Assembly: GCA_017531585.1 (NCBI GenBank)
Contig: JAFXKT010000001.1
Span: 248,001-312,000, forward strand
Length of the DNA stretch: 64,000 bases
From: Candidatus Saccharimonadota bacterium
GTDB taxonomy: Bacteria > Patescibacteriota > Saccharimonadia > Saccharimonadales > Saccharimonadaceae
Direction of reading: 5' to 3'
The notes below the pieces were generated by a model. The model did no database searches, was not told where the DNA came from, and worked only from the letters and a program-made list of their open reading frames with translations. Below, in pieces: positions 14,141-47,300 of this stretch. Each line of letters starts with the position of its first letter. The first letter of the stretch is position 1. Both the position numbers and the translations under genes were made by a program.

Positions 14141-15940
14141 TTAGCGAGCGCGCTTATCGTTTGGATTTGTTGTGATGAGTGATTCTTCTGTTTCGCTAGC
14201 GATAATTTGGATATGAACGTGGTTTTGACCAGCAAAGAACAACCCATGACCGACTGGGAAGTTTGCGAGACGTTTTCTCTCTTCGCTTGTTAACTTGAAG
14301 ACATCGGAAAGAACATCGACTGCAGATGCGGACTGCTTGAGCAATAGTTGCATGGACGAGTTGCTGACGATAGCGCGGCCCATTTTACTACTCATAAAGT
14401 CTTCAACGTCCTGAGAAATTGTAGTCAGACCGAGGAAGTACTTACGAGCGCGCTTTGCAAGGCTAAATAGGAAGCTTGCAGAATCTTCGTGTTGCATCAA
14501 GAGCCAGGCCTCATCAACGATAAGCATACGCTTGGTCTTCTTGGAACGGACAATACTCCAGATGTGAGATAGAACGATATACATTGCGACTGGGCGAAGT
14601 TCGTCTTCGAGATCGCGAATATTAAAGACGACCATGCGGTTATTGATATCGATATTGCTCTGCTGTGAGAAGATGCCGGCAAATGTACCAGTGGTATATT
14701 TGCGTAGGCGCTGTGCGAGGCTTGGACCGTTACCACCCATGTGTAGCAAAGTATCAAACAGATTGATAATTGTTGGTGGAGTTGCGGTATGTGTGAGCGG
14801 ATCGCTTGTGATGCCTGCGCGAGCGTAGGTATCGATAAGAGCTTGGTCAAGATCGGCATCCTCTGCTGGAGTAAGTGGCGTGCCACCGCCAAGCATGACA
14901 CGGAATAGACCGTGCAAGGTTGTGATGTTGGTACGAAGCGCATCATTGGCGTCTTCGGCATCAATAACCTTTGGAAGATCGAATGGGTTAATACGTGCAT
15001 CAGAGTTAAGGCTGAGGCGAATATACGAACCACCGACAGCATCGCAAAGGCGCTGATACTCGTTTTCTGGGTCGATAATAAGGATTTCGGTACCAATCAT
15101 CATGGAGCGCAAAGCTTCGAGCTTAACGGTGAAAGATTTACCTGCACCAGATTTAGCGAAGACGACCATGTTGGCGTTTTCTAGTGTGAAGCGGTCGAAG
15201 ATAACGAGACCGTTGTTGTGCATGTTAACGCCATAAAGAATGCCGTTTTCCTGGGTGAGGTCGGCAGACGTGAATGGGAATGTTGTCGAGATAGCACCAG
15301 TGTTCATGTTGCGGCGAATCTGGAGCTGATCGGTACATTGTGGCATGGTAGAGTTCATGCCCTGCTCTTGCTGTGAAGTAGCAACCTTAGAGAAGACCAT
15401 CTGCTGGCCGAGAATGTTTTCGATCTTGTGCTGAACAAACTGTAGTTCGTCTAGAGAATCGGCGTAAAGCGTAAAATATAGGCCGAAGCGGAAGAACTTT
15501 TCGGAACCAGTCTGGAGACCATCGCGCAAAGCTTCGGCATCCTGGAGAGCGTGTTCTAGTTCTGGGTCGCGAACTTTACCCTTTTCTGCGTTGAGGTTTA
15601 GGCTTGCTTCGAGCTGAGTAACCTTTTTGGTAAGGTTTTTCATGACGACTGTACTATCTGTTGGGTAGATGTACATGGAAATATCTAGAACTTCGTCGAT
15701 ATTGATGATTGAGCTAAGCCAACCAGTAATAAGGCTGCGTGGGTAGCCATAGACATAAAGCGTGCGGCCGTATTTCTGACCAAGACGATAATAATCTCCG
15801 TGGAACTCCAATGAAGCTGGAGCAATAAAATCTCGGAGGGTTCTTGTACCGACCTCAAACGCGTTCTGGATTTCAATTTCTTCTTGTAGTTTTGATTGTG
15901 AAGCGATGTCTGCTGCGCTTAGATTTTGCTTTTTTGCCAT
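14141..15940 (-). CDS. virB4: VirB4-type T4SS ATPase
   Basis: 599 residues. Walker A AKSGAGKSF lies at ~262-270, Walker B in RMLIVDEAWLLM, and a TTISQDVEDF motif further downstream. The first ~240 residues are a VirB4-like N-terminal region shorter than usual, and the preceding gene encodes a further TraC-like segment. VirB4 ATPases energise pilus biogenesis and substrate transfer at the inner membrane. Two nucleotides separate it from the upstream gene, whose last codons supply the AAGGAGA ribosome site. No separate VirD4 is seen. Confidence 0.9.
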   Translation of the reverse strand: MAKKQNLSAADIASQSKLQEEIEIQNAFEVGTRTLRDFIAPASLEFHGDYYRLGQKYGRTLYVYGYPRSLITGWLSSIINIDEVLDISMYIYPTDSTVVMKNLTKKVTQLEASLNLNAEKGKVRDPELEHALQDAEALRDGLQTGSEKFFRFGLYFTLYADSLDELQFVQHKIENILGQQMVFSKVATSQQEQGMNSTMPQCTDQLQIRRNMNTGAISTTFPFTSADLTQENGILYGVNMHNNGLVIFDRFTLENANMVVFAKSGAGKSFTVKLEALRSMMIGTEILIIDPENEYQRLCDAVGGSYIRLSLNSDARINPFDLPKVIDAEDANDALRTNITTLHGLFRVMLGGGTPLTPAEDADLDQALIDTYARAGITSDPLTHTATPPTIINLFDTLLHMGGNGPSLAQRLRKYTTGTFAGIFSQQSNIDINNRMVVFNIRDLEDELRPVAMYIVLSHIWSIVRSKKTKRMLIVDEAWLLMQHEDSASFLFSLAKRARKYFLGLTTISQDVEDFMSSKMGRAIVSNSSMQLLLKQSASAVDVLSDVFKLTSEERKRLANFPVGHGLFFAGQNHVHIQIIASETEESLITTNPNDKRAR

Positions 15941-17982: not shown

Positions 17983-20874
17983 TTAATTGTCTGGACTGAG
18001 TACGCCGACAAGCTTTGCGACAGTTGGGTTCATGCCACTTCTCATCGAGCTGTTCGAGCGAGACTGTAGTTCCTCGATTGCATGGTTCTTTGTGAGTAAT
18101 TCGATAAGGGTCGTACTCATAGCCTCGTGGCGTAGGACGCCTTTATCGTCGCGATAAGTAATATCGTGTACTCTACCATCAACAGCAGCAAGCATGCGGC
18201 TGAGCGTTAGGATTGCAGTAGACTTTGATGTAGAGAGCTGTTTTGCGCTCATACCACCAACGATTTCCGAAACGTATTCGTAAGCAGCTTGCTTATTCTC
18301 TGCGGTCTTAAAGTAATCGTTCTGACGTGCCGCGAGAGCCTGAATAGATGCAGCGTCTGCGCCATCTTCGATCTTGCCCATATCGAAACCGTTTGTAACA
18401 AGGCGGAGAGCGTTATTGAGAAGTTCACCATCCATTTCGCCGGACGAGATACTACCGCGAATATCCTTTGTATCAAAGAAGAAGTCGCTATTCTTAAGAA
18501 CACCACTTTGTTTGTATTTGAGGAGCTGTTTAAAGACGGTGCGGTCTTGAGTTTTGACGAGACCTTTATTCTTTTCGTCCTTGACGAGACCTGCGCGACT
18601 TACTTTCGCGTATTGTGTTGTATCGAGGTCGCCAGCAAGCTTTTTATCTTGGATAAAGTCTTCAAAGCTGATATAGCCTTCGATTTCGATACCCTGATCG
18701 TGCATGGAACGACGGATGTTGTTAGCTTTCGACCAGAGAGCGACTGGCTCATTTTCAGATTTGAGGCCCATGACGCTATCTACAAGGTGTTTCTGAGCAG
18801 TCATAAGCTTGAGGTCCTGAGGGTTGCTGAGGTCGCCACTATCCTTGATGTTGCCGCTATAGTTGCGCAAGATTTCCATGATATCGCCATGGTCGCCACG
18901 CCTTGAGATTTCTGGCAAAGCTGCATCGAAGATTGTGTAGTCAATATTGGCAACGTTTGCTTTGTATTGTTCGAGCTCGTCTGCAGTGAGGTTGCGTGCA
19001 GATGAACCTTCGCCCTGACGGCCAAGAGTCTTCTCTACTTCGTCGATAATACCGCGACCAGCGCGAGTTTCTGCGAAACGATCAGCATGACGTTTAACAG
19101 AGTCGGAGTCAACCTTGCGGCGGTCAGCAATAGCGTCGGAAATTAGGATACTACGAGCATGTTCGAAGCCTGCAGCATCGCCTGGATGAATACCAAAGCT
19201 TTCTGCGACCATGTTGCGAATGCGTAGAGATTCGTTGCTGAGGTTGCCTGCTGCATCGCCTTGGTCTTCAAGACTTTCGCGAATTCTAGTAGCAGCGCCA
19301 GAAGCGTTCTTGTGCGCGACATCATTGCGGTGCGCCTGAGCAATAGCCTTTCTAGTAACGTCTTCCTGGAGATGGGTGTTAACTTGACGGACGATATTGC
19401 GATAACCTGCAGTAACTTCGTTTTCGGCAAGGCCACTATCCATCTTGGTGTCAAATTCCATTCTTTCGTTGGCATTGTTGAGCTTGTTTTCTTGCATGAT
19501 GTAATACGTAGCGGCACGACGGTTATAGCGACCGTTGCGGTTGCGAGCATTGCGATAGTAACTTGCTTCGCCGTTCTCTTTTGCGGTGCGTTCATGAAGC
19601 GCGGTATCAACAGAAAGCTCGTTGCGGCGACGTTCGAGGTATTGAGCTAGACGGTTGTGTGGCATACCAGCACCACGGCCAAGGCCTGAGCGTTGACGCG
19701 CGAGAGTATTTCTGCGCCTTGCTTCGGCGAAACGACCGAAGGAGGCAGTAGCTGGTTTGGTTGTCTTGTTGATAATGTCGCTGATCTTGCCAAGGATAGT
19801 ACCAGACATACGCATGAGCGAGATAGAAGAAAATAGAGGCAGAATCTGGATTGCAAAACCAAGTACGAGCTGAAGTTCGTATCTTTCGTCGTTGACGTTT
19901 GCAGATGTCATAACAACAAAGCCTGCGAGGTGAGATGCACCATACATAACAGCAAACATTGGGAAGAAAATGAGCATGCGTAAGAGTAATGCGTACCACT
20001 TCTTTGCCCACGATTCAGTGTTTGGCAAGGCGTAAGCGATGATAGCGAGTGGCGATACCATAGTTAATAGATAGATGAGGGCCTGACGTGCGGCCATGGT
20101 TGCGATTGCGCTAATAACAGCAAGAGCGCCAGTAAGAAGAATTGGAAGGATTAGCCACATAATACCAGTGAAGCCACCAGTTTGAGATAGAACGGCAGTG
20201 CCGGCTACGACAGTTGCAACACCGATACCAAGAATCTTAGAAACAAGTGCACTAGCATTAACGGCACTTTCTGTATTAATGGTACCGTCTGCGATAGCTT
20301 GTGCCTCGATAGAAGCAAAGAAATCCTTTAGTCCGTGACCAATGATATTACTTAGATCTACGGCAACTTGGCATAGTAGATAGCTAAGGTTTGCGGCAAT
20401 AGCAATAATAACTAGGCGTGGAAGCGCTCTTTTGATGCCATAATTGTTGATGCCAAAACCGGTAATTTGGGACAAAATACAGATAAGAAGCACAACAATA
20501 AAGAGGCTGTTTGTAATGGTGCGGAAATAATTCCAAACGATTCTAAATGGTGCGTTTTCCTCTGTTGGCAGAGGGTCTACTTTGATTAAGTATTCAAGAA
20601 GGCCATATGCGCCATCGATAAGATTTGCAAGAGTACCAGTGCCCTGGCAGATAAACCAGGCCTGACCGCCAGCTTGTTTGCTACAGCTTTTTGGATCTTC
20701 TGTACCATTTGACTCTACGGTAGTTGTAGTGTTGTCTTCTGGAGCAGTAACTGCTGGAGTTTCTGGCGTAGGATTTGTAGGGGTTGGGTCGGCAAAAACA
20801 GGGGCGCTCAAGCTAAAAACGCCAAGCAACATAGCGAAAACGGAAAGAATGGCACCTCGCCAAAACTTCTTCAT
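17983..20874 (-). CDS. VirB6/TrbL-like T4SS channel protein
   Basis: 963 residues from the ATG at 20874; an upstream start at 20925 would overlap the promoter. A signal peptide (1-~30, ending APVFADP) is followed by a Thr/Pro/Glu linker. Several transmembrane helices lie between ~110 and 385, including a Gly/Ala-rich cluster and a YGIKRALPRLVIIAIAANLSY-like segment typical of VirB6/TrbL proteins. The C-terminal ~570 residues are soluble, charged and largely helical. VirB6 proteins form the inner-membrane part of the translocation channel. It diverges from the pilin array. Confidence 0.75.
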   Translation of the reverse strand: MKKFWRGAILSVFAMLLGVFSLSAPVFADPTPTNPTPETPAVTAPEDNTTTTVESNGTEDPKSCSKQAGGQAWFICQGTGTLANLIDGAYGLLEYLIKVDPLPTEENAPFRIVWNYFRTITNSLFIVVLLICILSQITGFGINNYGIKRALPRLVIIAIAANLSYLLCQVAVDLSNIIGHGLKDFFASIEAQAIADGTINTESAVNASALVSKILGIGVATVVAGTAVLSQTGGFTGIMWLILPILLTGALAVISAIATMAARQALIYLLTMVSPLAIIAYALPNTESWAKKWYALLLRMLIFFPMFAVMYGASHLAGFVVMTSANVNDERYELQLVLGFAIQILPLFSSISLMRMSGTILGKISDIINKTTKPATASFGRFAEARRRNTLARQRSGLGRGAGMPHNRLAQYLERRRNELSVDTALHERTAKENGEASYYRNARNRNGRYNRRAATYYIMQENKLNNANERMEFDTKMDSGLAENEVTAGYRNIVRQVNTHLQEDVTRKAIAQAHRNDVAHKNASGAATRIRESLEDQGDAAGNLSNESLRIRNMVAESFGIHPGDAAGFEHARSILISDAIADRRKVDSDSVKRHADRFAETRAGRGIIDEVEKTLGRQGEGSSARNLTADELEQYKANVANIDYTIFDAALPEISRRGDHGDIMEILRNYSGNIKDSGDLSNPQDLKLMTAQKHLVDSVMGLKSENEPVALWSKANNIRRSMHDQGIEIEGYISFEDFIQDKKLAGDLDTTQYAKVSRAGLVKDEKNKGLVKTQDRTVFKQLLKYKQSGVLKNSDFFFDTKDIRGSISSGEMDGELLNNALRLVTNGFDMGKIEDGADAASIQALAARQNDYFKTAENKQAAYEYVSEIVGGMSAKQLSTSKSTAILTLSRMLAAVDGRVHDITYRDDKGVLRHEAMSTTLIELLTKNHAIEELQSRSNSSMRSGMNPTVAKLVGVLSPDN

Positions 20875-20884
20875 AATGCGTTTA

Positions 20885-20913
20885 ATTATAGCACACATAA
20901 GCGATTTAGTCAA
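20885..20913 (-). promoter_or_regulatory. Promoter of the virB6-like gene, leaderless
   Basis: Near-consensus TTGACT (20908-20913), 17-nt spacer, TATAAT (20885-20890). Only 10 nt separate the -10 from the ATG, so transcription should begin within ~4 nt of the start codon. Confidence 0.8.
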
Positions 20914-21063
20914 GGTCAATCGCATATAATTATGTGGTGCTAGTCCTACCCTTTCTTACGTTTTTAATTATATCAATTTGGTATCATTTTTGCTTATGTT
21001 TGCAGGTTTGCTAAAAAAGTGTGCACCGTGATAATATATTACTAAGCTTAATAGGAGAGGTTC

Positions 21064-21519
21064 GTGATAAAGAAGCAGTCGACCAAAGAGTCGAATAAGT
21101 TTGGTAGTGTAAAAAAGAAATTTTTTGCGTTAGCCATTATGATGGCTGTTTTCTCTTCTCTTTTTGTAGGTTATACGAATGTATATGCCGATCCAGCTGC
21201 TTCTAATACGACTACTACAACTGGCGGTTCGGGTTCTACTACTTCTTCTAGTACGGGTAATTGTAAAACTGGCATTTTGCCGCAATCTTGGTGCGATCAA
21301 GGTATTGAGCAAATGATTAAGGATGTCGCAAGTATTCTTACTGCTCTAATCTTTGTTGCTGGTACAGGTTTTATAGTTTATGCTGGCTTCATTTGGGCTA
21401 CGGCAGGCGATAATCCTTCTCGTGTCGCTACTGCCAAGAAGCGTATCTTGGAAATTGTGATTGGTATGGTCTTCTTCTTGTTGATTAATCTATTAATTCA
21501 GTTCTTGATAGGTAACTAA
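21064..21519 (+). CDS. VirB2/TrbC-like pilin, array member 1
   Basis: 151 residues. GTG start 6 nt after an AGGAGAGG site. A signal segment (~20-43, ending NVYADP) precedes a Thr/Ser/Gly linker, then the two-helix pilin module (~90-150) with the loop AGDNPSRVATAKKRI. VirB2/TrbC pilins have this signal plus hydrophobic hairpin. First of eight pilin genes on this strand, divergent from the virB6-like gene. It differs from the others in the loop (DNPSR instead of DPGK). Confidence 0.75.
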   Translation: MIKKQSTKESNKFGSVKKKFFALAIMMAVFSSLFVGYTNVYADPAASNTTTTTGGSGSTTSSSTGNCKTGILPQSWCDQGIEQMIKDVASILTALIFVAGTGFIVYAGFIWATAGDNPSRVATAKKRILEIVIGMVFFLLINLLIQFLIGN

Positions 21520-21531
21520 AGGAAATAAAAA

Positions 21532-22182
21532 ATGAAGAAGTTTTTAGCCTCATTACTAATAGCTGTAACTGCAGTTTTTGGCATTGTCAATTTTTCTGCT
21601 CCGGCCACTGCCGCAGATATTGAGTGTAATCCTCCAAAAGTTATCGGAATTAATAGATGGTGTAATGGCCTGAGTGATGATTTTTCTACTGGCGACAAAT
21701 TAAAAGAATTTGTGATTGGTCTTGCAATTAATATATTGGATATGCTTCTTGGTGTTGCTAACTACGTGGCTGTTGTTATGGTGATGTATGGCGGTTTCTT
21801 GTATTTGACAGCTGGTAGCAATGAGCAACAGGTTGGTAAAGGTAAGAAAGTTGTTACTAATGCCGCGATTGGTGTTGCGATTATGACGGCTTCATCGGCA
21901 GTCATTGGTGTTATTCGCGAAGTATCGGGTTGGTTTTCAAAACCCAACGGTTCTGTTGCAGATGGCTTTGTTGAGATTGCGAACCAAGCATTCATTTGGG
22001 CTGGTGTTTTGGCAATTCTTATGATTATCTGGGGTGCGATTCAGTATTCTACTAGCGCGGGTGATCCTGGAAAGATTCAGAAGTCCAAGAAGACGATCAT
22101 TAATTCCGTCATTGGCGTTGTTATTGTGATTTTGGCGGCTTCTATCGTAAACCTAGTAGTTAAACAGGCAGGTAATTTGTAA
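21532..22182 (+). CDS. Double-module VirB2/TrbC-like pilin
   Basis: 216 residues with a signal peptide ending PATAAD. It contains two hydrophobic hairpins in tandem: ~58-118 with the loop AGSNEQQVGKGKK, and ~145-212 with the canonical SAGDPGKIQKSKKTI loop. The other array members have one hairpin each. GGAAATAA precedes the ATG by a few bases; the next gene starts 2 nt after the stop. Could be a fusion of two ancestral pilins and have a structural role distinct from the single-module forms. Confidence 0.75.
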   Translation: MKKFLASLLIAVTAVFGIVNFSAPATAADIECNPPKVIGINRWCNGLSDDFSTGDKLKEFVIGLAINILDMLLGVANYVAVVMVMYGGFLYLTAGSNEQQVGKGKKVVTNAAIGVAIMTASSAVIGVIREVSGWFSKPNGSVADGFVEIANQAFIWAGVLAILMIIWGAIQYSTSAGDPGKIQKSKKTIINSVIGVVIVILAASIVNLVVKQAGNL

Positions 22183-22183
22183 T

Positions 22184-22612
22184 ATGAAAAAGATTATTTC
22201 CAATGTAATTATTGTTCTTGGCTTTGTTGCTCTACTTTTAGCCCCACAGCAGTGTTTTGCTTCTGGAACTGGTGGCACTTCTGGCGGCACGGGCAAGATC
22301 GATGTTAAAGTTGACCCGGAGTATTGTTTTAAGAATCCTTCAGCTAAAGAATGTGTGGGTTATGACAATGATAAGCATTTAGATAAGGCTCAGAATATGG
22401 TCAAGACTATTATTGGCTGGGCTTCTCTAGTTGTAGGCCTTGCTTCGGTTGGCTTTATTATTTGGGGTGGCGTGATGTACTCTGCTGCATTTGGCGATCC
22501 TGGCAAGATTCAGAAGGCTAAGATGATTATTATTTCTGCAATCATCGGCCTTGTAATCGCTTTGATTTCGGGCTTTATCGTAACGGTAGTGTTAAATGGG
22601 CTTGGAATATAA
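22184..22612 (+). CDS. VirB2/TrbC-like pilin, array member 3
   Basis: 142 residues with a signal peptide (to ~CFASGTG) and a Gly/Thr linker. Two cysteines (EYCF, KECVG) fall before the hairpin at ~70-140, whose loop reads FGDPGKIQKAKMIII. Tightly packed behind the double-module pilin. Confidence 0.75.
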   Translation: MKKIISNVIIVLGFVALLLAPQQCFASGTGGTSGGTGKIDVKVDPEYCFKNPSAKECVGYDNDKHLDKAQNMVKTIIGWASLVVGLASVGFIIWGGVMYSAAFGDPGKIQKAKMIIISAIIGLVIALISGFIVTVVLNGLGI

Positions 22613-22625
22613 GGAGTAAGTTACA

Positions 22626-22943
22626 ATGAATCGTATTTTTACTACTTTTGGAGTTAAGGTTAAGGGTGCTGATCCTTGTGATGTCGATCCAAACTGTCAT
22701 GTGATTGATAATCCTGAAGGTTTCTTGAGTACTACTGCGCAGAATATTATTAACATTCTTCTTATTGCGGCTGGTGTCGTTGCGGCTATTGCTATTATTT
22801 ATGGCGGTGTTTCGATGATGACTGCTGCTGGCGATCCAGCCAAGATTACCAAGGGTAAGAAAGCAATTTTCGGTGGCGTAATTGGCCTAATTATCGTTCT
22901 CTTGGCCGGTGCAATTGTCAATTTTGTGCTCGCTAATATTTAA
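22626..22943 (+). CDS. VirB2/TrbC-like pilin without obvious signal peptide
   Basis: 105 residues. The hairpin module (~40-104) has the loop AGDPAKITKGKKAI. The N-terminus (MNRIFTTFGVKVKG) lacks a hydrophobic signal; CDVDPNCHV supplies two cysteines. AAGGAGTAAG precedes the ATG. A ~78-bp AT-rich gap follows before the next pilin. Confidence 0.72.
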   Translation: MNRIFTTFGVKVKGADPCDVDPNCHVIDNPEGFLSTTAQNIINILLIAAGVVAAIAIIYGGVSMMTAAGDPAKITKGKKAIFGGVIGLIIVLLAGAIVNFVLANI

Positions 22944-23021
22944 GATAGTTTTTGGCATTTTTATTTTTTGGGTTTTATGTTATATTTTTAGTAACTACTC
23001 TAAAATAATTAAAGGAGAAAA

Positions 23022-23555
23022 ATGAATAAGATTAAAAAAGCTTTGATGGTTCTTGCCCTCACAGTGCTTAGCGGTTTGGCGATTGCTGCGCCAATCTTCG
23101 CTGCTGGTAATGGTCTCTGCGATGGTCGTTACAACCTAATCGCATCAGACAAGGCAACTAATGACTTTACCGTCTCTTGTGGATCACAGTATGTTTCCGC
23201 AGAAACTGCAAGCCTATTGAATGTTAACAATAAGAAGGCTGGTCCTGTTAACTTCTATGGTAAGTCTCAGTCTGACTGTGCTCGCCTTGGTACTATCCTA
23301 AGCGCAAGCGACCCTTGCTCTGCAACCGATCTTAATTCTACAATTCGTACTATCATTAACGGTATTACATTCGTAGTTGGTCTTATCGCAGTTATCATGA
23401 TTATCATCGGTGGTATCTTCTACGCTATCTCCGCTGGTGATCCAGGCAAGGTCAAGAAAGCTAAGGATACTATCATGTATGGTATCATCGGTCTTATCGT
23501 TGCTCTTCTCGCCTTTGCGATTATCAACTTCGTACTCCAGATGGTACAGGGCTAA
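23022..23555 (+). CDS. VirB2/TrbC-like pilin, longest single-module member
   Basis: 177 residues. Signal peptide (1-27, ending PIFAAG), then a ~75-residue ectodomain with four cysteines (GLCDG, VSCGS, SDCAR, DPCSA), then the hairpin (~110-175) with SAGDPGKVKKAKDTIMYGIIGL. AAAGGAG site 6 nt upstream. The Cys-rich ectodomain may be disulfide-bonded outside the membrane. Followed by a strong terminator. Confidence 0.78.
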   Translation: MNKIKKALMVLALTVLSGLAIAAPIFAAGNGLCDGRYNLIASDKATNDFTVSCGSQYVSAETASLLNVNNKKAGPVNFYGKSQSDCARLGTILSASDPCSATDLNSTIRTIINGITFVVGLIAVIMIIIGGIFYAISAGDPGKVKKAKDTIMYGIIGLIVALLAFAIINFVLQMVQG

Positions 23556-23570
23556 TTAGAAAAGCTTATT

Positions 23571-23597
23571 AAAACCGCCAGAGATGGCGGTTTTTTG
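23571..23597 (+). terminator. Terminator splitting the pilin array
   Basis: AAAACCGCC-agagat-GGCGGTTTTTT; strong stem and T-run. Divides the eight pilin genes 5 + 3. Confidence 0.9.
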
Positions 23598-23668
23598 TTA
23601 GAGCTTATGGATGATGCTAATTAGTAGTTATGGTATAATATTTTTAAGAATATAAAAGGAAGTGTAAA

Positions 23669-24004
23669 TTGAGTAACTCTATTGTTTTGAGATTGCTTTC
23701 TGGCTTTGGCGATGCAAAATCGAAAGTCAATGATGGTATTGAGGCAGTCGATCCAGGTTCCTCTACCCCAGGTTCTGGAGATCTATACAGCGACGTTCAA
23801 AGAATCCTCGGCTATGTATTTATGGTCGTTGGCATCGTGGCGGTCATCATGATTATCTATGGTGGCGTCTTGATGCTTATTTCTATGGGCGATCCGGGCA
23901 AGAATAAGAAGGCTCGTGATACCATTATCTATGGTATTATTGGTTTAATAATCGTGCTCTTGTCTTGGGCGATTGTAAATTTTGTACTATCTTTGTTCAA
24001 TTAA
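23669..24004 (+). CDS. VirB2/TrbC-like pilin, TTG start
   Basis: 111 residues, starting at TTG after AAAGGAAGTG. No signal peptide is visible. The hairpin module (~45-110) carries the loop MGDPGKNKKARDTIIYGIIGL. A TATAAT-like box near 23634-23639 suggests that this second pilin group has its own promoter. Confidence 0.72.
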   Translation: MSNSIVLRLLSGFGDAKSKVNDGIEAVDPGSSTPGSGDLYSDVQRILGYVFMVVGIVAVIMIIYGGVLMLISMGDPGKNKKARDTIIYGIIGLIIVLLSWAIVNFVLSLFN

Positions 24005-24014
24005 GGAGAAAAAA

Positions 24015-24464
24015 ATGAAAGTAATGAAAAAAATTGGTTATTATCTAGCTGCAGTTCTTTGTATGGGTTTTGTAGCTTTTGCTGCAAACGAATTGCATCC
24101 CGATGTTTACGCGGCGGTAAGCGTTGATTGTTCTAGCGAGACTTCTCCTGCTCGTATTGCAAAGTGTGGTGCTTGTAAGACTCAGTCTAATGACGATGCT
24201 GCCTACCAAGATTGTATGGATGGTAAGAACGAAAAGAACGATCTTTATAGCAATGTTCGCACGATTATTAACTGGATTGTAATGGTTGTTGGCATTGTTG
24301 CTGTAATTATGATTATTCTTGGTGGTATCTTCTATGCAATCTCTGCCGGTGATCCTGGAAAGACCAAGAAAGCAAAGGATACGATTCTTTATGGCATTAT
24401 TGGTCTAGTTATTGTTCTTCTCGCCTTTGCAATCGTAAACTTTGTTTTGGGTATTTTGGAATAA
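24015..24464 (+). CDS. VirB2/TrbC-like pilin
   Basis: 149 residues from the ATG at 24015 after AAGGAG; an earlier in-frame ATG at 23982 overlaps the previous gene and is rejected. Signal peptide (~1-33), short ectodomain with four cysteines (DCSSE, KCGACK, DCMDG), hairpin ~85-148 with SAGDPGKTKKAKDTILYGIIGL. Shares its hairpin sequence closely with the pilin at 23022. The next pilin follows directly after the stop. Confidence 0.78.
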   Translation: MKVMKKIGYYLAAVLCMGFVAFAANELHPDVYAAVSVDCSSETSPARIAKCGACKTQSNDDAAYQDCMDGKNEKNDLYSNVRTIINWIVMVVGIVAVIMIILGGIFYAISAGDPGKTKKAKDTILYGIIGLVIVLLAFAIVNFVLGILE

Positions 24465-24860
24465 ATGAAGAAGTTTCTACTTAGTTTGGGGGCAATCGTA
24501 TTAGCTATTACAGGTAGTTTTGCTATTACTGTTCCTTGTTTTGCTGGATCTAAGGAAACAAAGGAGGCAGCTTGCGCGGCGGCTTATGGTGATTCTGGAC
24601 CGGATTACAATAAGTGTATGAATGGTAGCACTACGGATGGTGTTCTTGCTAAGGTTAAGGACATTCTAAATGTAGTCTTCCTAGTAGTAGGTATCTTGGC
24701 AGTTATTATGATTATTGTGGGCGGCATATTTATGATGATATCTGCGGGCGATCCTGGTAAGATTAAGCGAGCTAAGGATACTATTATATATAGCGTAATT
24801 GGTCTTATTATTACCCTTCTAGCCTTTGCGATCGTAAACTTTGTAGTTGGAATGTTCTAG
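24465..24860 (+). CDS. VirB2/TrbC-like pilin, last of the plus-strand array
   Basis: 131 residues. Signal peptide ending CFAGS, short Cys-containing ectodomain (EAACAAAYG, YNKCMNG), hairpin ~62-130 with SAGDPGKIKRAKDTIIYSVIGL. No gap from the previous stop, so translation is coupled. A terminator follows within 10 nt. Confidence 0.78.
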   Translation: MKKFLLSLGAIVLAITGSFAITVPCFAGSKETKEAACAAAYGDSGPDYNKCMNGSTTDGVLAKVKDILNVVFLVVGILAVIMIIVGGIFMMISAGDPGKIKRAKDTIIYSVIGLIITLLAFAIVNFVVGMF

Positions 24861-24866
24861 AAAAAA

Positions 24867-24889
24867 AGAAGCCTTCGGGCTTCTTTTTT
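24867..24889 (+). terminator. Terminator at the end of the pilin array
   Basis: AGAAGCC-ttcg-GGCTTCTTTTTT with a stable TTCG tetraloop. Confidence 0.92.
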
Positions 24890-24916
24890 GTTGGTCTAAT
24901 AATATGTTGCAGGCAA

Positions 24917-24947
24917 AAAAATAACTGCCCTTTCGGACAGTTATTTG
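24917..24947 (-). terminator. Terminator of hsp20
   Basis: AATAACTG/CAGTTATT stem around TTTCGG; the T-run is on the minus strand. Confidence 0.8.
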
Positions 24948-24959
24948 CTTTTATAGATC

Positions 24960-25472
24960 CTAGTTGATTGGGATTCTGGTTGGAGCTGCAACCTTTTCCT
25001 TTTCGAAGGAGATGGTTAGAACGCCGTCTTTTAGGATAGCTTCTACGCCATTCTCTTTGACCTGGACTGGAAGAGCGATGGTGCGGCTAAATTCACCCCA
25101 GTAGCATTCCTGAATGTGCCACTGAGTAGCCTTGTCGTCTTCTCCGCTATTAAGAACACCAGAAATTGTTAGGATATTATCGTTGATAGAAACATCAAGA
25201 TCTTTTCTTTCGATACCGGCAGTGCGGGCCTTGATGATTAGTTTGTCAGCAGTTTCGTAAACATCGACTGCAAGCTGACCTGGGAGCTGATCGTCGTCAT
25301 CCCATTCGTCATCTTCTTCAACTTCTTCAATAACTTGCTCTTCTTCTGCTGGAGTGTCGTCGGGGACTTCCACAGGTTCCTCTTCGGCGGTCAAAGCAGA
25401 TACGCCATCCTCTTGCAAGAAAGCGGCGGCAAGCTCATCGTCTAAGCTCATTTCGTCTTGTTTTCGAGCCAT
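24960..25472 (-). CDS. Small heat-shock protein (Hsp20/alpha-crystallin)
   Basis: 170 residues. Residues 1-65 are strikingly acidic (Glu/Asp runs) and unlike a typical Hsp20 N-terminus. Residues ~70-165 form the alpha-crystallin domain: LAVDVYETADKLIIKA, GIERKDLDVSI, ILTISGV, and the C-terminal GVLTISFEK followed by the TRIPIN tail (I-x-I-like motif). ATP-independent holdase for unfolding proteins. GGAGG site before the ATG. No CIRCE element is seen here. Confidence 0.9.
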   Translation of the reverse strand: MARKQDEMSLDDELAAAFLQEDGVSALTAEEEPVEVPDDTPAEEEQVIEEVEEDDEWDDDDQLPGQLAVDVYETADKLIIKARTAGIERKDLDVSINDNILTISGVLNSGEDDKATQWHIQECYWGEFSRTIALPVQVKENGVEAILKDGVLTISFEKEKVAAPTRIPIN

Positions 25473-25558
25473 AATAAATTTTTTCCTCCACTATTACACT
25501 CTTAAGCTTTATTATATGGGGCTTTTACTCTAAAATCAAGATATAAAGAGGAGGTGTT

Positions 25559-26221
25559 GTGAAAAATACAATGAGATTTGTTTTGTCGAACACATTTTGT
25601 CCTTTATTCTGTTTGAATTGCGGTAAATGCGGTGATATTTTGTGTGATTGTTGTAAGAAAAACATGAGTCTTGGCTATGGCAAGTGTCTAAAATGCGGCA
25701 AGGTTTTGAATGATGGTTTCTGTTCTGTTTGTGGTTTGCCCTTCCGCTTTCAATTTTGTTTAGGCGAAAGACATGGTGTTTTGAAAGAATTGATTTCGGA
25801 GTTTAAATACAATTCGAACAAAGCCGCCGGAGCGAAGCTTGTAGAATTAATTGGAGAGTTAGTTGGATTCGATAAAGATGCTATTATTGTGCCGCTTCCA
25901 ACGATTATGAAGCATGTGCGTGAGCGTGGCTTTGGTCAGACTGAATGACTGGCTAAGAGACTTAGGGAAGCTAACGGATGTAAGGCATTAAATTTGCTCA
26001 CAAGGGCTAAAAATACGGTTCAAGTTGGTGCAAGTTCGGATCAAAGAAAACTTCAGGCCGCGGAGGCTTATAGGCTTGCTGGGCGCATTGATCGAGACAA
26101 GCAGTTTGTGCTGCTAGACGATGTATGGACGACAGGAAGCTCCATGATGGCTGCTGCGGAGTTGTTTAGGCGCGTGGGCGCGAATAATGTCTCTGCTCTT
26201 CTGTTAGCGCGTACGATTTAA
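25559..26221 (+). pseudogene. comF: comF-like phosphoribosyltransferase gene with in-frame TGA
   Basis: The frame from GTG 25559 (after AGAGGAGG) is open to 26221 except for one TGA at 25946-25948, with no shift of frame. The N-terminal zinc-ribbon cysteines (CLNCGKCG, CDCC, CLKCG, CSVCG) are present, then the family motif RGFGQTE, the TGA where a hydrophobic residue is expected, then LAKRL, and finally an intact PRPP-binding LLDDVWTTGSS. ComF proteins act in DNA uptake during competence. A single TTA-to-TGA change would explain it. Real nonsense mutation, sequencing error, or readthrough cannot be told apart here; restart at TTG 25994 would give only a 75-residue tail. Confidence 0.8.
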
Positions 26222-26227
26222 GAAGTA

Positions 26228-26254
26228 ACAAAAAACCGCCCTTTCGAGCGGTTT
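26228..26254 (-). terminator. Terminator of the detached pilin gene
   Basis: Minus strand AACCGC...GCGGTTTTTT; lies between the convergent comF and pilin genes. Confidence 0.8.
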
Positions 26255-26263
26255 GGTTTCGTA

Positions 26264-26674
26264 TTATTGACTTACGCTTCCGATTGCGCCAATTACAAAG
26301 TTAATGATTGCATAGGCTAGGATTGCGATAATAAGGCCGATAATTGCGTAGATGATTGTGTTCTTAGCGGCTGTAACTTTGGATGCGTCGCCGCCAGATA
26401 GAACATAGCGAAGACCGCCGTAGATGAGCATGATAACGGAAATGATACCAACGGCGTAAAGGACAGTGTTAGTAAGATTGTTAAAGACACCATCGACACC
26501 AACTAGTTCAGATGGCATGCCGTTTGCTTTTGCGGTTTCTGCGCCAGCCTGTGCTGGATTATCGTTGCCAGAGATATTTGTAATATCTAGAGCCATTACA
26601 CTACCAGCTGATAGTACGATAGCGGTAGCAATACCAGTTACAATTAGCCCTGCTTTTTTTGCGATTTGCTTCAT
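26264..26674 (-). CDS. VirB2/TrbC-like pilin, detached ninth gene
   Basis: 136 residues. Signal peptide (~1-28, ending SVMALD), short polar ectodomain without cysteines, and a hairpin module ~66-130 with the loop SGGDASKVTAAKNTIIYAIIGL. AGGAAAG upstream of the ATG. Lies alone on the opposite strand beyond hsp20 and comF, so it is probably regulated apart from the main array. Confidence 0.78.
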   Translation of the reverse strand: MKQIAKKAGLIVTGIATAIVLSAGSVMALDITNISGNDNPAQAGAETAKANGMPSELVGVDGVFNNLTNTVLYAVGIISVIMLIYGGLRYVLSGGDASKVTAAKNTIIYAIIGLIIAILAYAIINFVIGAIGSVSQ

Positions 26675-34328: not shown

Positions 34329-34352
34329 GCAACCGCAAGGTTGTATTTTTTG
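34329..34352 (+). terminator. Second terminator downstream of the tRNA-Ser(CGA) element
   Basis: CAACC-gcaa-GGTTG followed by a T-run. Confidence 0.75.
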
Positions 34353-34379
34353 TGTTTATGCTTTTGTTATAATTTAGGT

Positions 34380-34874
34380 ATGGATGATAGTAATAAGAGG
34401 ATGTCTGATGCCGAGTGGCTCGGTGTTAAGGAAGAGCCCGTAGCTCAGCCTCAGTCTGTTCAGAACGCTAATACTCAGCCTGCTGAGGGCGTTCAGGATG
34501 TAAATACAACCGTAAACACTCCAGCTACTTCGAATATACCGGTCGCGGTCGATAACAGTAAATACGAGAAGATGGCAACTTGGGCGATTATTCTTAATTT
34601 TGGTGCGCCGGTAATTGCTGGTTTTTGGTTCATTTCTCTCCTAGCAGAGCTTGGCTGTGCGCTTAGTCATGGTTGCTCTTCTCTACATTCTAGCGCCTAT
34701 TACTATATCTTAATGCTAGTTGTTGGTGCTGCTTTTCTTGTTGGTGTCATTCTTTCGTTTATGTCTTTCGGCAAAACAAGAAGTACTATCAAGAAAGTCC
34801 TGATTGTTGTTTCTCTGCTTCCTTACGTTCCTGTTGTTCTTGGCTTACTTACTAGCCTTGTAGGCGCACTCTGA
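34380..34874 (+). CDS. Membrane protein of unknown function
   Basis: 164 residues from ATG 34380, 6 nt after a TATAAT box (34368-34373), so leaderless; an upstream in-frame ATG lies before the promoter. The N-terminal ~65 residues are polar and Gln/Asn/Thr-rich with MSDAEWLGVKEE. Then three or four hydrophobic helices (~68-160) with two cysteines in ELGCALSHGCSS. Ends in TGA; the HIT gene begins 12 nt later in the same frame with no other stop between. Confidence 0.6.
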   Translation: MDDSNKRMSDAEWLGVKEEPVAQPQSVQNANTQPAEGVQDVNTTVNTPATSNIPVAVDNSKYEKMATWAIILNFGAPVIAGFWFISLLAELGCALSHGCSSLHSSAYYYILMLVVGAAFLVGVILSFMSFGKTRSTIKKVLIVVSLLPYVPVVLGLLTSLVGAL

Positions 34875-34886
34875 TATCATATAGAT

Positions 34887-35273
34887 ATGGCTACTATTTT
34901 TACGAAAATTATTGAGGGAGAGATTCCTTCTTACAAGATTTACGAAGATGACCGCGTAATGGCTTTTTTGGATATTAATCCAGAAGTCAAGGGACATACT
35001 CTAGTTGTTCCTAAGGTAGAAGTAGACAAAATCTATGATCTATCTGACGTTGACTGGGTTGCTCTATGGGCTGCCGTAAAGAATATCTCTAAGCATATGG
35101 AAGAGGTTACTGGTCGTCGTACGCTTTACAAGGTTATCGGTACAGATGTGCCTCATGCTCACGTTCATCTTATGCCTTTTGATGAGACTTGGGAGCAAGG
35201 TAAGACCCTTTCCCTAAGCGAAGATGAATTCAATTCAATTCGCGAAAAGCTTTCGATGATCGAAGAAGCTTAG
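34887..35273 (+). CDS. HIT family nucleotide-binding protein
   Basis: 128 residues. Starts with the typical TIFTKIIEGEIPSYKIYED, continues AFLDINPEVKGHTLVVPK, and carries the histidine triad HAHVHLMPF near 90-98. HIT hydrolases cleave nucleotide phosphoramidates or dinucleoside polyphosphates. Close behind the membrane protein gene and followed by a strong terminator. Confidence 0.93.
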   Translation: MATIFTKIIEGEIPSYKIYEDDRVMAFLDINPEVKGHTLVVPKVEVDKIYDLSDVDWVALWAAVKNISKHMEEVTGRRTLYKVIGTDVPHAHVHLMPFDETWEQGKTLSLSEDEFNSIREKLSMIEEA

Positions 35274-35319: not shown

Positions 35320-36711
35320 TTACTCTTCTGTTGTGTTTTGTGCTGCTTCACCAAGCTGTTTTGCACGTCGGCGCATTTGGATTTCCCTAGTGGCGTCATC
35401 TTGTCTTTTGGTTTCGGTTTTTGCTATTTCGGTAAATCTACTATATGATTCGTCCTCGTCTGTAAAATCAGATTGTATCTCTTTAAGAAGGATACTAACG
35501 CCGGCTCTTACTTCTTCTTGAGTTAGAGGACCTTCTGGCTTTTTGAGGATATATCTAATAGTGGATTCTGTGGCTGGTAGGTCCGAAGTTAGAATACCTT
35601 TTTGCGTTTCGTGGATTGAATCTTCGAGAATAGCTATCATCTTTTCGAGTTTATGTTTCCAGCGATTTGCGGAATATATTTTTTCCTCAGTCTCTTTTAC
35701 CTGGCTTTTTAGTTGTTCATCTTCAATGTATTCTGAAAATGGATAATCGTCGATGCTTTCTTCTAGTTCTTCGATTTCTCTTTCGGTTGCTGCTAGGTAG
35801 TAGTAGTTTTGGGCCTGGATTTGTAAAAGGAATTTTAGCTTTAGGTCTGGCATTTTGTCGATGCCATTTTCCGTAAGGCCATTTTCGTCGATTTCAGTCT
35901 GAAATAGGACATCGTCACATGCTTGGTCGCCAAGGCTTAGCGTATAGTGGATGACGTGATTCTTTGGAAATTCGCGCTGCTGTTTGCTTGGGTCGTTTTC
36001 GCCCGGTTTGGCGTAATATGTAATTTGCGATTCACCAGGATGCAACTGTCTGTCTCCGGCCATCCTTATTTTTGTAAGCTTTTTGCCGAGCTTTTCTGGG
36101 ATTTTAGTGGAGGTGATGTCAAAAGCGATAATTAGGCTTGGAGCGCGCCCTTCCTCGTCTGGCTGTCCTTCGATTATCGAGTAGATATCGATGCCATTTT
36201 TTAGGTCATCAAAATCTGAGGACTGACGGGTTCTAATGGTTTCGTTTTCGAGAGCAAAAAACTGCGAATTATTGAGATAGGTTACGAACAATCTTTCGAC
36301 AGCCTTGGCTTTGCTAAAGGTATTATCGAGGCCTCTTTCAGTATCTTCCTGACTAAGCAGTTCGCGCATTTCTCTCGTGTCTGCTTCGTTATAGTCGATG
36401 CGGCTCGTATAAACATCTTCGTCTTGAAGTTGTCTGCGACCTGCTTGAATTTCGCGAAGAGATTTTTTGGTAAGAATTGGCAACTTGCCTTGCATACCTC
36501 TTTGTTCTGCTTCTCTATAGGCTTGGAGTTTAGCCGTTTGAGATGAGGCGAATTTTGCTTCGGATTGACTGCGATATGATTTGAATTCTTGTAGGTTTGG
36601 AGTTTCGATTACTTCAAAATCTACATCTTCGATTTCGCTAAGATTTTTTTCGATTTTGTGTTTTCTTTTTTCGTCGAAGCTTTCGGTGGAAGGTTTTTGT
36701 TTTTCGCTCAT
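35320..36711 (-). CDS. Hypothetical charged cytoplasmic protein
   Basis: 463 residues from the ATG at 36711. No signal or membrane segment. N-terminal third is rich in Lys/Glu/Arg/Gln and likely helical; the middle (~190-270) has strand-like LIIAFDITSTKIPEKLG and HVIHYTLSLGDQA; the C-terminal ~170 residues look coiled-coil (EREIEELEESI, KETEEKIYSANRWKHKLEKMIAILE). I do not recognise a family. The promoter is TTGACA-N17-TTATAT with a leader of only ~7 nt. Confidence 0.65.
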   Translation of the reverse strand: MSEKQKPSTESFDEKRKHKIEKNLSEIEDVDFEVIETPNLQEFKSYRSQSEAKFASSQTAKLQAYREAEQRGMQGKLPILTKKSLREIQAGRRQLQDEDVYTSRIDYNEADTREMRELLSQEDTERGLDNTFSKAKAVERLFVTYLNNSQFFALENETIRTRQSSDFDDLKNGIDIYSIIEGQPDEEGRAPSLIIAFDITSTKIPEKLGKKLTKIRMAGDRQLHPGESQITYYAKPGENDPSKQQREFPKNHVIHYTLSLGDQACDDVLFQTEIDENGLTENGIDKMPDLKLKFLLQIQAQNYYYLAATEREIEELEESIDDYPFSEYIEDEQLKSQVKETEEKIYSANRWKHKLEKMIAILEDSIHETQKGILTSDLPATESTIRYILKKPEGPLTQEEVRAGVSILLKEIQSDFTDEDESYSRFTEIAKTETKRQDDATREIQMRRRAKQLGEAAQNTTEE

Positions 36712-36725
36712 TTTTCTTATCTTTA

Positions 36726-36754
36726 ATATAAGCATAAATACTTTAATTTGTCAA
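36726..36754 (-). promoter_or_regulatory. Promoter of the 463-aa hypothetical gene
   Basis: Consensus TTGACA (36749-36754), 17-nt spacer, TTATAT (36726-36731), then 14 nt to the ATG; no Shine-Dalgarno. Confidence 0.7.
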
Positions 36755-36759
36755 GAAGC

Positions 36760-36783
36760 AAAAAGGGGGCATTTCTGCCCCCA
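36760..36783 (-). terminator. Terminator of the 81-aa hypothetical gene
   Basis: Minus strand GGGGGCA-gaaa-TGCCCCC followed by five T. Confidence 0.9.
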
Positions 36784-36793
36784 TGGGTTTGAA

Positions 36794-37039
36794 TTACTCA
36801 AAAGCTTTTTTGAGTTTCTCTAAACCCAGCTCTGGTGTTGTCCATGACAATGGATTGGTCACGATCATGATGACCCCATTTTTCGCGTAGTCCATGCTGA
36901 ATCCGGCGATTTCGCCAGTAATCGTCATGTCCCGGAGGATTTTTTGTGCCTTATCGGCACTAAGATGGACCTTTTGCGTATCAAAGGATACTTGCAGCAG
37001 CGTATCTGCTGCTTTCGAAATAACGATATTCTCTTTCAT
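36794..37039 (-). CDS. Small hypothetical protein
   Basis: 81 residues from ATG 37039, after a GGGAGGAAATAATATA leader with a strong ribosome site. Alternating hydrophobic pattern (LLQVSFDTQKVHLSADKAQKILRDM, GVIMIVTNPLSW) suggests a small alpha/beta fold. No transmembrane segment, no known motif. Own terminator, so probably monocistronic. Confidence 0.6.
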   Translation of the reverse strand: MKENIVISKAADTLLQVSFDTQKVHLSADKAQKILRDMTITGEIAGFSMDYAKNGVIMIVTNPLSWTTPELGLEKLKKAFE

Positions 37040-44317: not shown

Positions 44318-47300
44318 ATGGATAATAAATCTGGAAATCCGTTTCCGCCAGAGAGGGCTGATGATCTAGAGCAGGGCTCTGGAAGTCCTTTTGACATCCT
44401 TGGAGATGTTCAGTTTGGCGGCCAGGACGACGATCCGCTTGGGCGTCAGGCGGAAGCTGATAAGCATGCGCAGAGATACGAAGATCTTCGCAAAGAAAAA
44501 GACGAACGTGCTCAAAGGCTTGAAGAGTACGAGTCGACTCAAACTATACCTTTTAAACCCGATACACATAATGAACGTGCTGCTCAGGCCGATGTTGAGC
44601 TTGGCCGTTATCTTAGTCTGATTGACCCAAGTCAGCAAGAGGCAATTGCTTTTGTGCAAGAGCCTGGCGTTGTTGACTTTTTGAATGATACCCAAATTGC
44701 TGGTTACAGCCCAATAGATGACCGTATGGTCGATGCTTTAAGAGCTAGCTTTGAAGAATGGAAGGGGAAGCAAGAGGATAGTAGCTCTGAGATTGATGCT
44801 TCTTCTGAAGCTCCTATTTTTGAAAACTCGAGCGATAATGATGAACGTCATTTTGATGAGCACTATGAAAAGTTAAATGATCCTGCATATATGGATTCGT
44901 TAAAGAGCCTAAGTGTTGATGAACTTAGGAAAGGCAATATTATCGGTGCTCGCCAGGAGCTAGAACGAAGAGCTCGTGAGCTAGATAATGCTCCGATTGA
45001 GACTAGTGCAGATGACAACAAGGACGAGACTGATCATAGTGCTGACCTTGATCAACATCGTAAAATGTATTTGGAAGAATTAACTAGCGGTCCTGGTGCT
45101 AAGTGGCTTGCCGTGAATATGCCAGATACTACTCCTGAAGATCTTAAAAAGATGGATGATTTTCAGTTGATGAGTATTTATTTGGATTATGATACTGCTC
45201 ATACGCAGTCGTTAATCGATGAACAGGACGCTCTAAGTGAACGGCTGAATAATCTGAATAATAATTCCGCTGAAGGCGAAACTGGAACAGAGACCGATTC
45301 CGCAGAGCAACCTGCCGAAGAGACAGTTGAGGAGCCTACTGAGCAAGCCGCAGAGCAAACAGTCCAACAGCCTACCGAACAACCTGCCGAACAGCCTGCT
45401 GTTCAGCCTTCTGAGCAGCCAGTTGAACAACCTGCTGAGCAGCCTGTCGTGCAACCTGTTGCTGAAGCGATTTCAGAGGAGCAGTCTGCTGATGGTTCTG
45501 CAGACGGTCAAGCTAGCGAACCTGCTGGACAATCCACTGAGGATTTGACTGGAGATTCTTCTGCAGAGCAAGAGTCGGGAGATGACAAAGATAGCGAAGC
45601 TAGTGGGGATTCTGCAGACGGTCAGGCTAGTGAATCTGCTGAGCAATCCACTGAGGAATTGACTGGAGATTCTTCTACTGAAAGCGAAGAAGCAGGTGAA
45701 CCTACTGAAGAAGAGCAATCCGACGAAGAGACCGAAGAGTCCGAACAGAGCTCTACTGAGGAGGAAGAGAATTCTACCGAAGAAGAAGAGAGCTCAGAGG
45801 ATGAAGAATCTGAGAAGAATTTTGAGCGCGAAAAAGCCTTAGAAACATTCTTTGGTGAGGAAGATGCCACGAATTGGCTAGAAAAGAATCATGGCGAATT
45901 GTCTGGTACTGATATAGAAAACTTGAGCGATGAAGAACTCGAAGCTCTTTGGAAAGAGTACATGGATAGCCGTGGCGAAGAAGAAGAGGATTCCGCAGAA
46001 GAAGGCGAATCCAAGAAGCCAAAGAGCATGATGGAATTCTTGAACGAAAAGGGGATCACTGGTGATGATCTTCGCAATATGGATCCAAAGAAGATGATGG
46101 CGCTCTTGAATGAGTATGATTCTCTATATTCTGGCGGAAATCGCGAAGAAGAAAATTCTGATGAGGACGAAGAATCCGAAAAGAATTTTGAGCGCGAGAA
46201 AGCTCTAGAAACATTCTTTGGTAACGAAGATGCTACGGAATGGCTAGAAAAGAATCATGGCGAATTGTCTGGCACGGATCTAGAAAATATGAGCGACGAG
46301 GATCTTGAAGCTCTTTGGAAAGAGTACATGGATAGCCGTGGTGAGGAAGAAGAAAATTCTGATGAAGATGAAGAATCTGAGAAGAATTTTGAGCGCGAAA
46401 AAGTCCTAGAAACATTCTTTGGTAACGAAGACGCTGCGGAATGGCTAGAAAAGAATCACGGTGAATTGTCTGGTACTGATATTGAGAATATGAGCGACGA
46501 AGAACTCGAAGCTCTTTGGAAAGAGTACATGGATAGCCGTGGTGAGGAAGAACGTTCCGAAGAAGAAGGGGAAGAAGAACGCCGCTCGCCAGAGGAAGAG
46601 GGGGGAGAGCGCGAAGAAGAAGAAAAAGCCGAAGACGAAGAGTCTGAGAAAGAAGAGGAAGAAGAGCGCTCTGCTGAGGAAGAAAGAGCCGAACGCGAAG
46701 TCTTGACGGTCGTTAATGCTATGGCTGAAGAGGATGCAAGAATTGCAGCTGGCATTATTGCTGAACAGGCTTATAACGAAGAAATTAACAAGATGTGGCG
46801 CTTTAATCCTGTACGTTTGTGGCGTCAGTCGAGGCCAGGTCGTTCGTTCAGAATGAAGCACTATAATGCTGAGGCTATGGATAAACTTCGCAGCTTCAGA
46901 AATGGTGAAACTCCAGAAGTTCCAGCAGGGTTCTGGAATGAAAGAGACGTTATCGCTAAGTTTACGATGGCATACATGGAGAATCTCGAGAACGAGATGG
47001 TTCACAGCGATGCTGGCGAAATGATGCGTGGCTACACGGTTCGTGTTGGTGAAGATGGTACAGAAACTGTTGTTCATCGCCGCCGTAACGAAAATGGTGA
47101 GATTGAAGAAATCGAGGTTATGCGCCGCAAGAGCGATGGTACTATCGAGAATCTCATCGAAGAGGAAGAAGGCGACGAATCCGAGGCGATGGAGCGCGAC
47201 GCAAGGGCGGCCATTGAAACCAAGGATGCTATTAGGCGCTTTGCTGAATCTGGCGGTACTGCCGATGATAAGAATGCATTTATTGCAGCCATTAAGAAGA

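What the first reader, a model, noticed from the sequence alone, without database searches (positions are those of the whole stretch)
21064..26674. Nine VirB2/TrbC-like pilin genes carrying ten pilin modules
Conjugation systems normally encode one major pilin. Here eight genes in a row plus a ninth across hsp20-comF share the hairpin with a GDPGKxxKAKxTI-type loop. Ectodomains differ sharply (no signal, Cys-rich, Thr/Gly-rich). A terminator splits the array 5 + 3. This looks like diversification, perhaps a heteropolymeric pilus or switchable surface subunits.
Basis: partly seen in the sequence, partly recalled or inferred. Interest (0 to 1): 0.7.

Follow-up and report, generated by a model that had tools for sequence, protein, structure and literature searches.

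The report
Array of nine T4SS pilin genes
A tiny bacterium that probably lives attached to other bacteria carries nine related genes for the building blocks of a secretion pilus; such arrays are already published for its phylum, but here they show a conserved plan of one apparently highly expressed main subunit plus several fixed specialist subunits.

Summary
Eight genes on the + strand (21064-24860) and a ninth on the - strand (26264-26674) carry ten copies of a two-helix module. All nine proteins pass Pfam's T4SS_pilin (PF18895) cut-off; none passes TrbC/VIRB2 (PF04956). All ten of the genome's modules lie here, beside a VirB4/PrgI-type secretion locus. A terminator splits the array 5+3. It is not unusual for its group: 142 of 147 genomes of the class have this family, usually 5-9 copies, and such arrays were published in 2023 and 2025. 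What this study adds concerns organisation. Across 34 arrays the first pilins form a tight, low-codon-bias block. A ~75-nt gap with a promoter-like motif follows, then one codon-optimised pilin (P5 here). Position 1 is orthologous across the order, and position 2 probably is; the ninth gene is one clade in the genus; later positions duplicate locally (P5-P8). All eight array genes are under purifying selection, and two close relatives keep the same order. This favours a fixed mixed-subunit pilus or channel over switchable surface variants. Polymerisation and a pilus remain inferred. Novelty: new member of a known kind. Genus-specific in-frame TGA codons in the neighbouring comF may be the more unusual observation.

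The parts
21064..21519 (+). P1 (class A): pilin with signal-like N-terminus, Thr/Ser/Gly linker, 2 Cys, one hairpin; orthologous to the first pilin of arrays across the order
21532..22182 (+). P2 (class B): two tandem hairpin modules, predicted four long helices (54-93, 98-136, 142-174, 179-214); double-module form kept in most same-genus genomes
22184..22612 (+). P3 (class C): pilin with signal-like N-terminus and 2 Cys outside it; at this position four relatives have 538-555 aa proteins
22626..22943 (+). P4 (class D): short pilin without signal sequence; predicted helical hairpin 30-65 / 71-104
22978..22986 (+). promoter-like extended -10 (TGTTATATT) 44 nt before P5; similar motif before the codon-optimised pilin in 30 of 34 arrays
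23022..23555 (+). P5 (class E): candidate major pilin; signal-like N-terminus, 4 Cys, highest codon adaptation of the array (CAI 0.679)
23571..23594 (+). intrinsic terminator after P5, splitting the array 5+3
   Evidence: -15.0 kcal/mol, followed by T-rich tail
23634..23639 (+). TATAAT -10-like hexamer before P6 (TGGTATAAT context)
   Evidence: sequence printed upstream of P6
23669..24004 (+). P6: pilin without signal sequence and without Cys; lineage-specific duplicate of the P5 type
24015..24464 (+). P7: pilin with signal-like N-terminus and 4 Cys outside it; lineage-specific duplicate; CAI 0.63
24465..24860 (+). P8: pilin with signal-like N-terminus and 2 Cys outside it; lineage-specific duplicate
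24862..24889 (+). intrinsic terminator after P8
   Evidence: -17.5 kcal/mol
26264..26674 (-). P9 (class I): pilin beyond hsp20 and comF on the other strand; one clade in the genus, found in this place in the same-genus loci that cover the region
17983..20925 (-). VirB6-like polytopic protein (assignment by position and literature; no Pfam match)
   Evidence: PMC12102498
16875..17870 (-). PrgI/VirB3-like protein
   Evidence: PF12666, 44.7 bits
15943..16860 (-). TrsD-like / VirB4 N-domain-like protein (weak match to TraC_F_IV)
14141..15940 (-). VirB4-type ATPase
   Evidence: PF19044, 105 bits
9447..11249 (-). phage-lysozyme2 + GDSL + NlpC/P60-like cell-wall enzyme of the same locus

Best explanation
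The locus encodes the pilin set of the chromosomal type IV secretion system of a Saccharibacteria-type epibiont. Shown: nine proteins with ten T4SS_pilin modules next to VirB4/PrgI; P1-P4 tightly spaced with low codon bias; P5 behind its own gap and promoter-like site, with codon use close to ribosomal proteins and a terminator after it; the same two-part layout in arrays from the genus and 12 other families; ancient position-specific paralogues; purifying selection. Inferred: the hairpins insert with the basic loop facing the cytoplasm and the N-terminal ectodomain outside; P5 is the major, most abundant subunit; P1, P2 and probably P4 and P9 are specialised minor subunits (initiator, adaptor to the membrane platform, or tip); P6-P8 are recent extra copies that widen the subunit set. 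Together they would form a mixed-subunit pilus or envelope-spanning channel used to contact the host bacterium.
For: All nine pass PF18895, and only this locus in the genome has them. VirB4 and PrgI neighbours. Order VirB4-TrsD-PrgI-VirB6 | pilins | hsp20 kept in most relatives. Position-1 pilins of the genus and of 12 of 13 arrays from other families form one set in the tree (99), not rejected as a clade (p 0.90), whereas the window's ten modules as one clade are rejected (p 1e-41). P9 orthologues are one clade. Codon adaptation: P5 0.679, r-proteins 0.73, the other seven + strand pilins 0.43-0.63; at C-ending codons P5 has 31/53 against 63/282. The codon-optimised gene follows the tight block in 18 of 22 same-genus arrays and is last or next to last in 12 of 13 other-family arrays; it has the largest upstream gap in 22 of 34 (6.6 expected) and a promoter-like motif in 30 of 34 against 25 of 117. 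dN/dS 0.03-0.24. The Southlakia pilin series is essential (PMC10633639).
Against: Codon bias and promoter-like motifs are proxies for expression; P7 also has fairly high CAI (0.63), and two relatives have the next gene slightly above the P5 position. Weights from this genome were applied to all genomes, and the motif was chosen after looking at some of the sequences. The tree rests on 63 columns, many forks are unresolved, and orthology of positions C and D is unclear. No structure match singles out conjugative pilins, and no pilus of this system has been seen. PMC12206443 attributes the thick filament of N. lyticus to a type IV pilus, not the T4SS.
Confidence: 0.62

Rival explanations
1. Host-range or antigen-like diversification: paralogues are alternative major pilins whose ectodomains diversify to bind different hosts, used one at a time or in changing mixtures (the suggestion made in PMC12102498 by analogy with Bartonella and Anaplasma).
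For: Ectodomains change faster than hairpins; P5-P8 are a lineage-specific expansion; copy number varies among relatives; P6 has its own promoter-like site. In TM7x some T4SS and 'effector' genes change between infection phases (PMC10768705).
Against: The same eight genes in the same order in three genomes; dN/dS well under 1 even in ectodomains (0.03-0.30); no long repeats or inverted repeats suited to switching; the first positions are orthologous across families.
Confidence: 0.2
2. The paralogues are Sec-exported, membrane-anchored surface or effector proteins that use a pilin-like hairpin as anchor and do not polymerise; only one or two build the T4SS.
For: Relatives have 410-650 aa, and Parcubacteria 911-2320 aa, proteins with the same N-terminal hairpin, one with Ig-like Big_2 domains. 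In PMC10768705 the T4SS region of TM7x carries putative effector genes; PMC12102498 re-reads the Sec-secreted array of TM7x as pilins.
Against: The window proteins have only short extensions beside the hairpin; the short class is a bare hairpin; the hairpin is the best-conserved part with basic loop and glycines kept.
Confidence: 0.13
3. Recent selfish or neutral tandem duplication with no functional partition.
For: P5-P8 form one recent clade.
Against: Old position-specific orthology, purifying selection in every gene, retention in small genomes, and essentiality of the series in Southlakia epibionticum (PMC10633639).
Confidence: 0.05

Closest known systems
Patescibacteria VirB2-like pilin arrays (Quinonero-Coronel et al. 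2025, PMC12102498; 441 arrays of 2-11 genes in 383 assemblies)
   Same: Same Pfam family used to find them, same VirB4-linked location, same tandem arrangement and high divergence
   Different: That paper suggests host-range versatility; in the passages read here it does not give the position-wise orthology, the codon-optimised gene with its own promoter-like site, or the double-module subunit
Southlakia epibionticum ML1 T4SS pilin series (SEML1_0006-0019, Wang et al. 2023, PMC10633639; six pilins according to PMC12857230)
   Same: Saccharibacteria T4SS with a series of predicted pilins; essential for epibiotic growth
   Different: Nine genes and ten modules here; P6-P8-type duplicates and the ninth pilin beyond hsp20 were not compared with ML1
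VirB2/TrbC conjugative pilins (Pfam PF04956)
   Same: Small two-helix hairpin, basic loop, T4SS linkage; sub-threshold profile similarity in several window proteins
   Different: No window protein reaches the family cut-off; one pilin per system is usual there; larger ectodomains here
Mbov_0395 family pilin-like conjugal transfer proteins of mycoplasma ICEs (NF045849)
   Same: P5-P8 pass the curated cut-off of 40 bits
   Different: That profile is only 80 positions long, whereas these proteins are longer and come as an array; P1-P4 and P9 fall below the cut-off

Membership tests
Pfam PF18895 T4SS_pilin | score above the curated cut-off | tested here: met
   40-65 bits against 26.6 for all nine; ten modules in the genome
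Pfam PF04956 TrbC/VIRB2 pilin | score above the curated cut-off | tested here: not met
   best 25.8 against 27.9 bits; no match at E 0.001 in the whole genome; 16 of 37 aligned relatives reach E 0.001
NCBIfam NF045849 Mbov_0395 pilin-like protein | score above 40 bits | tested here: inconclusive
   P5-P8 42.6-47.8 pass; P1-P4 and P9 25-37 do not
VirB2-type conjugative pilin (structural) | two-helix hairpin with short loop | tested here: met
   AlphaFold2 model of P4, helices 30-65 and 71-104, hairpin blocks pLDDT about 91-95; P2 shows two hairpins at lower confidence
VirB2-type conjugative pilin (structural) | fold match to solved conjugative pili | tested here: inconclusive
   A. pernix conjugation pilus 8dfu appears at Z 7.8, rmsd 3.8, 74 residues, among many unrelated helical hairpins of equal or higher Z
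VirB2-type conjugative pilin (structural) | polymerises into a pilus, lipid-bound or cyclised subunits | not testable with these tools
   needs biochemistry or cryo-EM
[quoted passage not shown]
   eight in tandem plus one beyond hsp20 and comF; VirB4 about 5 kb away
Gram-positive MPF_FATA T4SS | VirB4 and PrgI-type components | tested here: met
   PF19044/PF12846 and PF12666 matches
Conjugative T4SS | relaxase and coupling protein | not tested
   not searched for in this genome; PMC12102498 reports relaxases in few Patescibacteria and few coupling-protein genes near virB4

The most novel reading that the evidence does not exclude
The order-wide layout encodes an obligately heteromeric T4SS pilus with fixed roles: a translationally coupled set of minor pilins made in low amount, including a fused double pilin, and one separately promoted major pilin. 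That would be unlike the single-pilin conjugative pili known so far.
Probability: 0.45. Interest if true: 0.6.

Novelty: new member of a known kind. Interest (0 to 1): 0.4.

Why it matters
The T4SS is essential for epibiotic growth in the one Saccharibacteria species tested (PMC10633639), and its pilus has not been seen. Naming one gene as the likely major pilin, and the first positions as conserved minor subunits, gives direct targets: tag P5-type proteins to look for a filament, and delete position 1 or 2 to test assembly. The data speak against copying the antigenic-variation model from Bartonella and Anaplasma.

Tried and rejected
Fold searches with P2 and P4 models gave only generic helical hairpins, so they neither confirm nor deny a conjugative pilin fold; a PDB sequence search with the pilin alignment found nothing significant. 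No RNA family other than a tRNA in the region. Repeats suited to switching were looked for and not found. The 'hairpin CAI / N-part CAI' columns printed were computed partly out of frame and are ignored. Position names C and D were not resolved as orthologous groups. An all-ORF search for in-frame stops was too noisy because of shadow ORFs and is not used.

Full report
Observation. Eight adjacent + strand genes (21064-24860) and one - strand gene (26264-26674) encode proteins of 105-216 aa. All nine pass the Pfam cut-off of PF18895, T4SS_pilin, and the second has two modules. These are the only ten such modules in the 1.01 Mb genome. TrbC/VIRB2 (PF04956) stays just below its cut-off and finds nothing in the genome at E 0.001. 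P4 and P6 lack a signal-like segment; the others have one; the Cys outside the signals number 0, 2 or 4. Terminators follow P5 and P8. The stated 5+3 split is therefore correct.

Context. On the other strand, divergent from the array, lie a polytopic protein (VirB6-like by position), PrgI, a TrsD-like protein, a VirB4 ATPase and a cell-wall hydrolase. This is the chromosomal T4SS described for Patescibacteria (PMC12102498). The nearest named relatives are uncultured Ca. Saccharibacteria.

Known status. PMC12102498 reports 441 arrays of 2-11 VirB2-like pilin genes in 383 assemblies, with about 25% mean identity, especially in Saccharimonadia and Microgenomatia. PMC10633639 reports an essential series of pilins in the T4SS of Southlakia epibionticum ML1. 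Our own counts agree: 39 of 41 relatives and 142 of 147 genomes of the class have the family; by my tally the usual number is 5-9 copies and ten genomes have ten or more. So the array is not exceptional in kind, although its ten modules are at the upper end.

Orthology. In most same-genus genomes the order is VirB4-TrsD-PrgI-VirB6 (reverse), pilins (forward), hsp20 (reverse), a pilin (reverse), a 154-aa gene, groEL; the sampled genomes of other families have mostly six or seven pilins and none beyond hsp20. In a tree of the modules, the first pilin of 12 of 13 other-family arrays groups with the genus's first pilin (99), the second groups with the first module of the double protein (94, not starred), and the ninth gene is a single clade (96). 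Holding the first-position pilins together is not rejected (p 0.90); holding the window's ten modules together is (p 1e-41). By contrast P5-P8 form a clade found only in the window and its close relative G009. A third genome, L081, has the same eight plus one genes in the same order. The tree has only 63 columns and many open forks, so the middle positions remain unresolved.

Selection. Between the window and G009 all eight array genes have dN/dS of 0.03-0.24. Hairpins are mostly the most conserved part; N-terminal parts reach 0.30. This is relaxed or slowly diverging sequence, not positive selection, although pairwise averages cannot exclude selection on single sites.

Expression layout. P1-P4 are separated by 1-13 nt. 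P5 lies behind 78 nt holding a promoter-like TGTTATATT, and is followed by a terminator. Its codon use is far more like ribosomal proteins (CAI 0.68) than that of most other + strand pilins. Genes on the - strand have a different base composition, so only + strand genes were compared. In 34 arrays the codon-optimised gene usually comes right after the tight block, has a median upstream gap of 74 nt against 1 nt for the others, and has a promoter-like motif in 30 of 34 against 25 of 117 other genes. The motif was chosen after seeing some sequences, so the p-value is descriptive.

Structure. P4 is predicted as a two-helix hairpin, well scored; P2 as two hairpins at moderate confidence. Fold searches are uninformative for such simple shapes.

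Interpretation. The simplest reading is a heteromeric T4SS pilus or channel: an abundant P5-type subunit and several low-abundance, position-specific subunits, with recent extra copies in this lineage. Switching is disfavoured. Steps shown are family membership, location, orthology, selection and layout. Steps inferred are abundance, topology, co-assembly and host contact.

Side finding. The neighbouring comF (25559-26221) is interrupted by an in-frame TGA. In the genus nearly every comF has one to three in-frame stops, all TGA, at different places, with the frame otherwise kept. In 198 genomes of the family every stop among the listed matches lies in this genus and is TGA. In three genomes TGA stands where the other genus members have Trp. 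Control genes of the locus have 5 in-frame stops in about 59,000 codons. This was not part of the finding but may deserve its own study.

Noticed in passing
window 25559-26221 (TGA at 25946-25948); L054, L059, L061-L066, L070, L072-L079, L081, L082: comF in this genus carries 1-3 in-frame TGA codons (never TAA or TAG) at differing positions with an otherwise intact frame; three genomes have TGA at a column that is Trp in the other genus members; G001 and G011 and the listed genomes of other genera have none. Suggests UGA read-through (perhaps as Trp) in this gene, or shared decay limited to TGA.
   Followed up: partly
L063:7041-8708, L065, L074, L078 (position C), L055, L057, L058: In some same-genus relatives a pilin module is attached to a much larger protein (about 500-650 aa); the one scanned, L063, has Ig-like Big_2 domains and a weak DUF4886 match. 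Possible pilus-borne adhesins or enzymes.
   Followed up: partly
L083, L084, L085, L086: Parcubacteria and Falkowbacteria contigs encode 911-2320 aa proteins with an N-terminal T4SS_pilin-like hairpin.
   Followed up: no
window 34341-35273 and 35320-36801: Two ORFs that become longer if TGA is read as sense; the first joins a membrane protein to an HIT-like protein and looks like two adjacent genes, the second only extends an N-terminus, so neither is good evidence for recoding.
   Followed up: partly
window 44318-49567 and 56813-60703: Very long ORFs of 1749 and 1296 aa, not examined.
   Followed up: no
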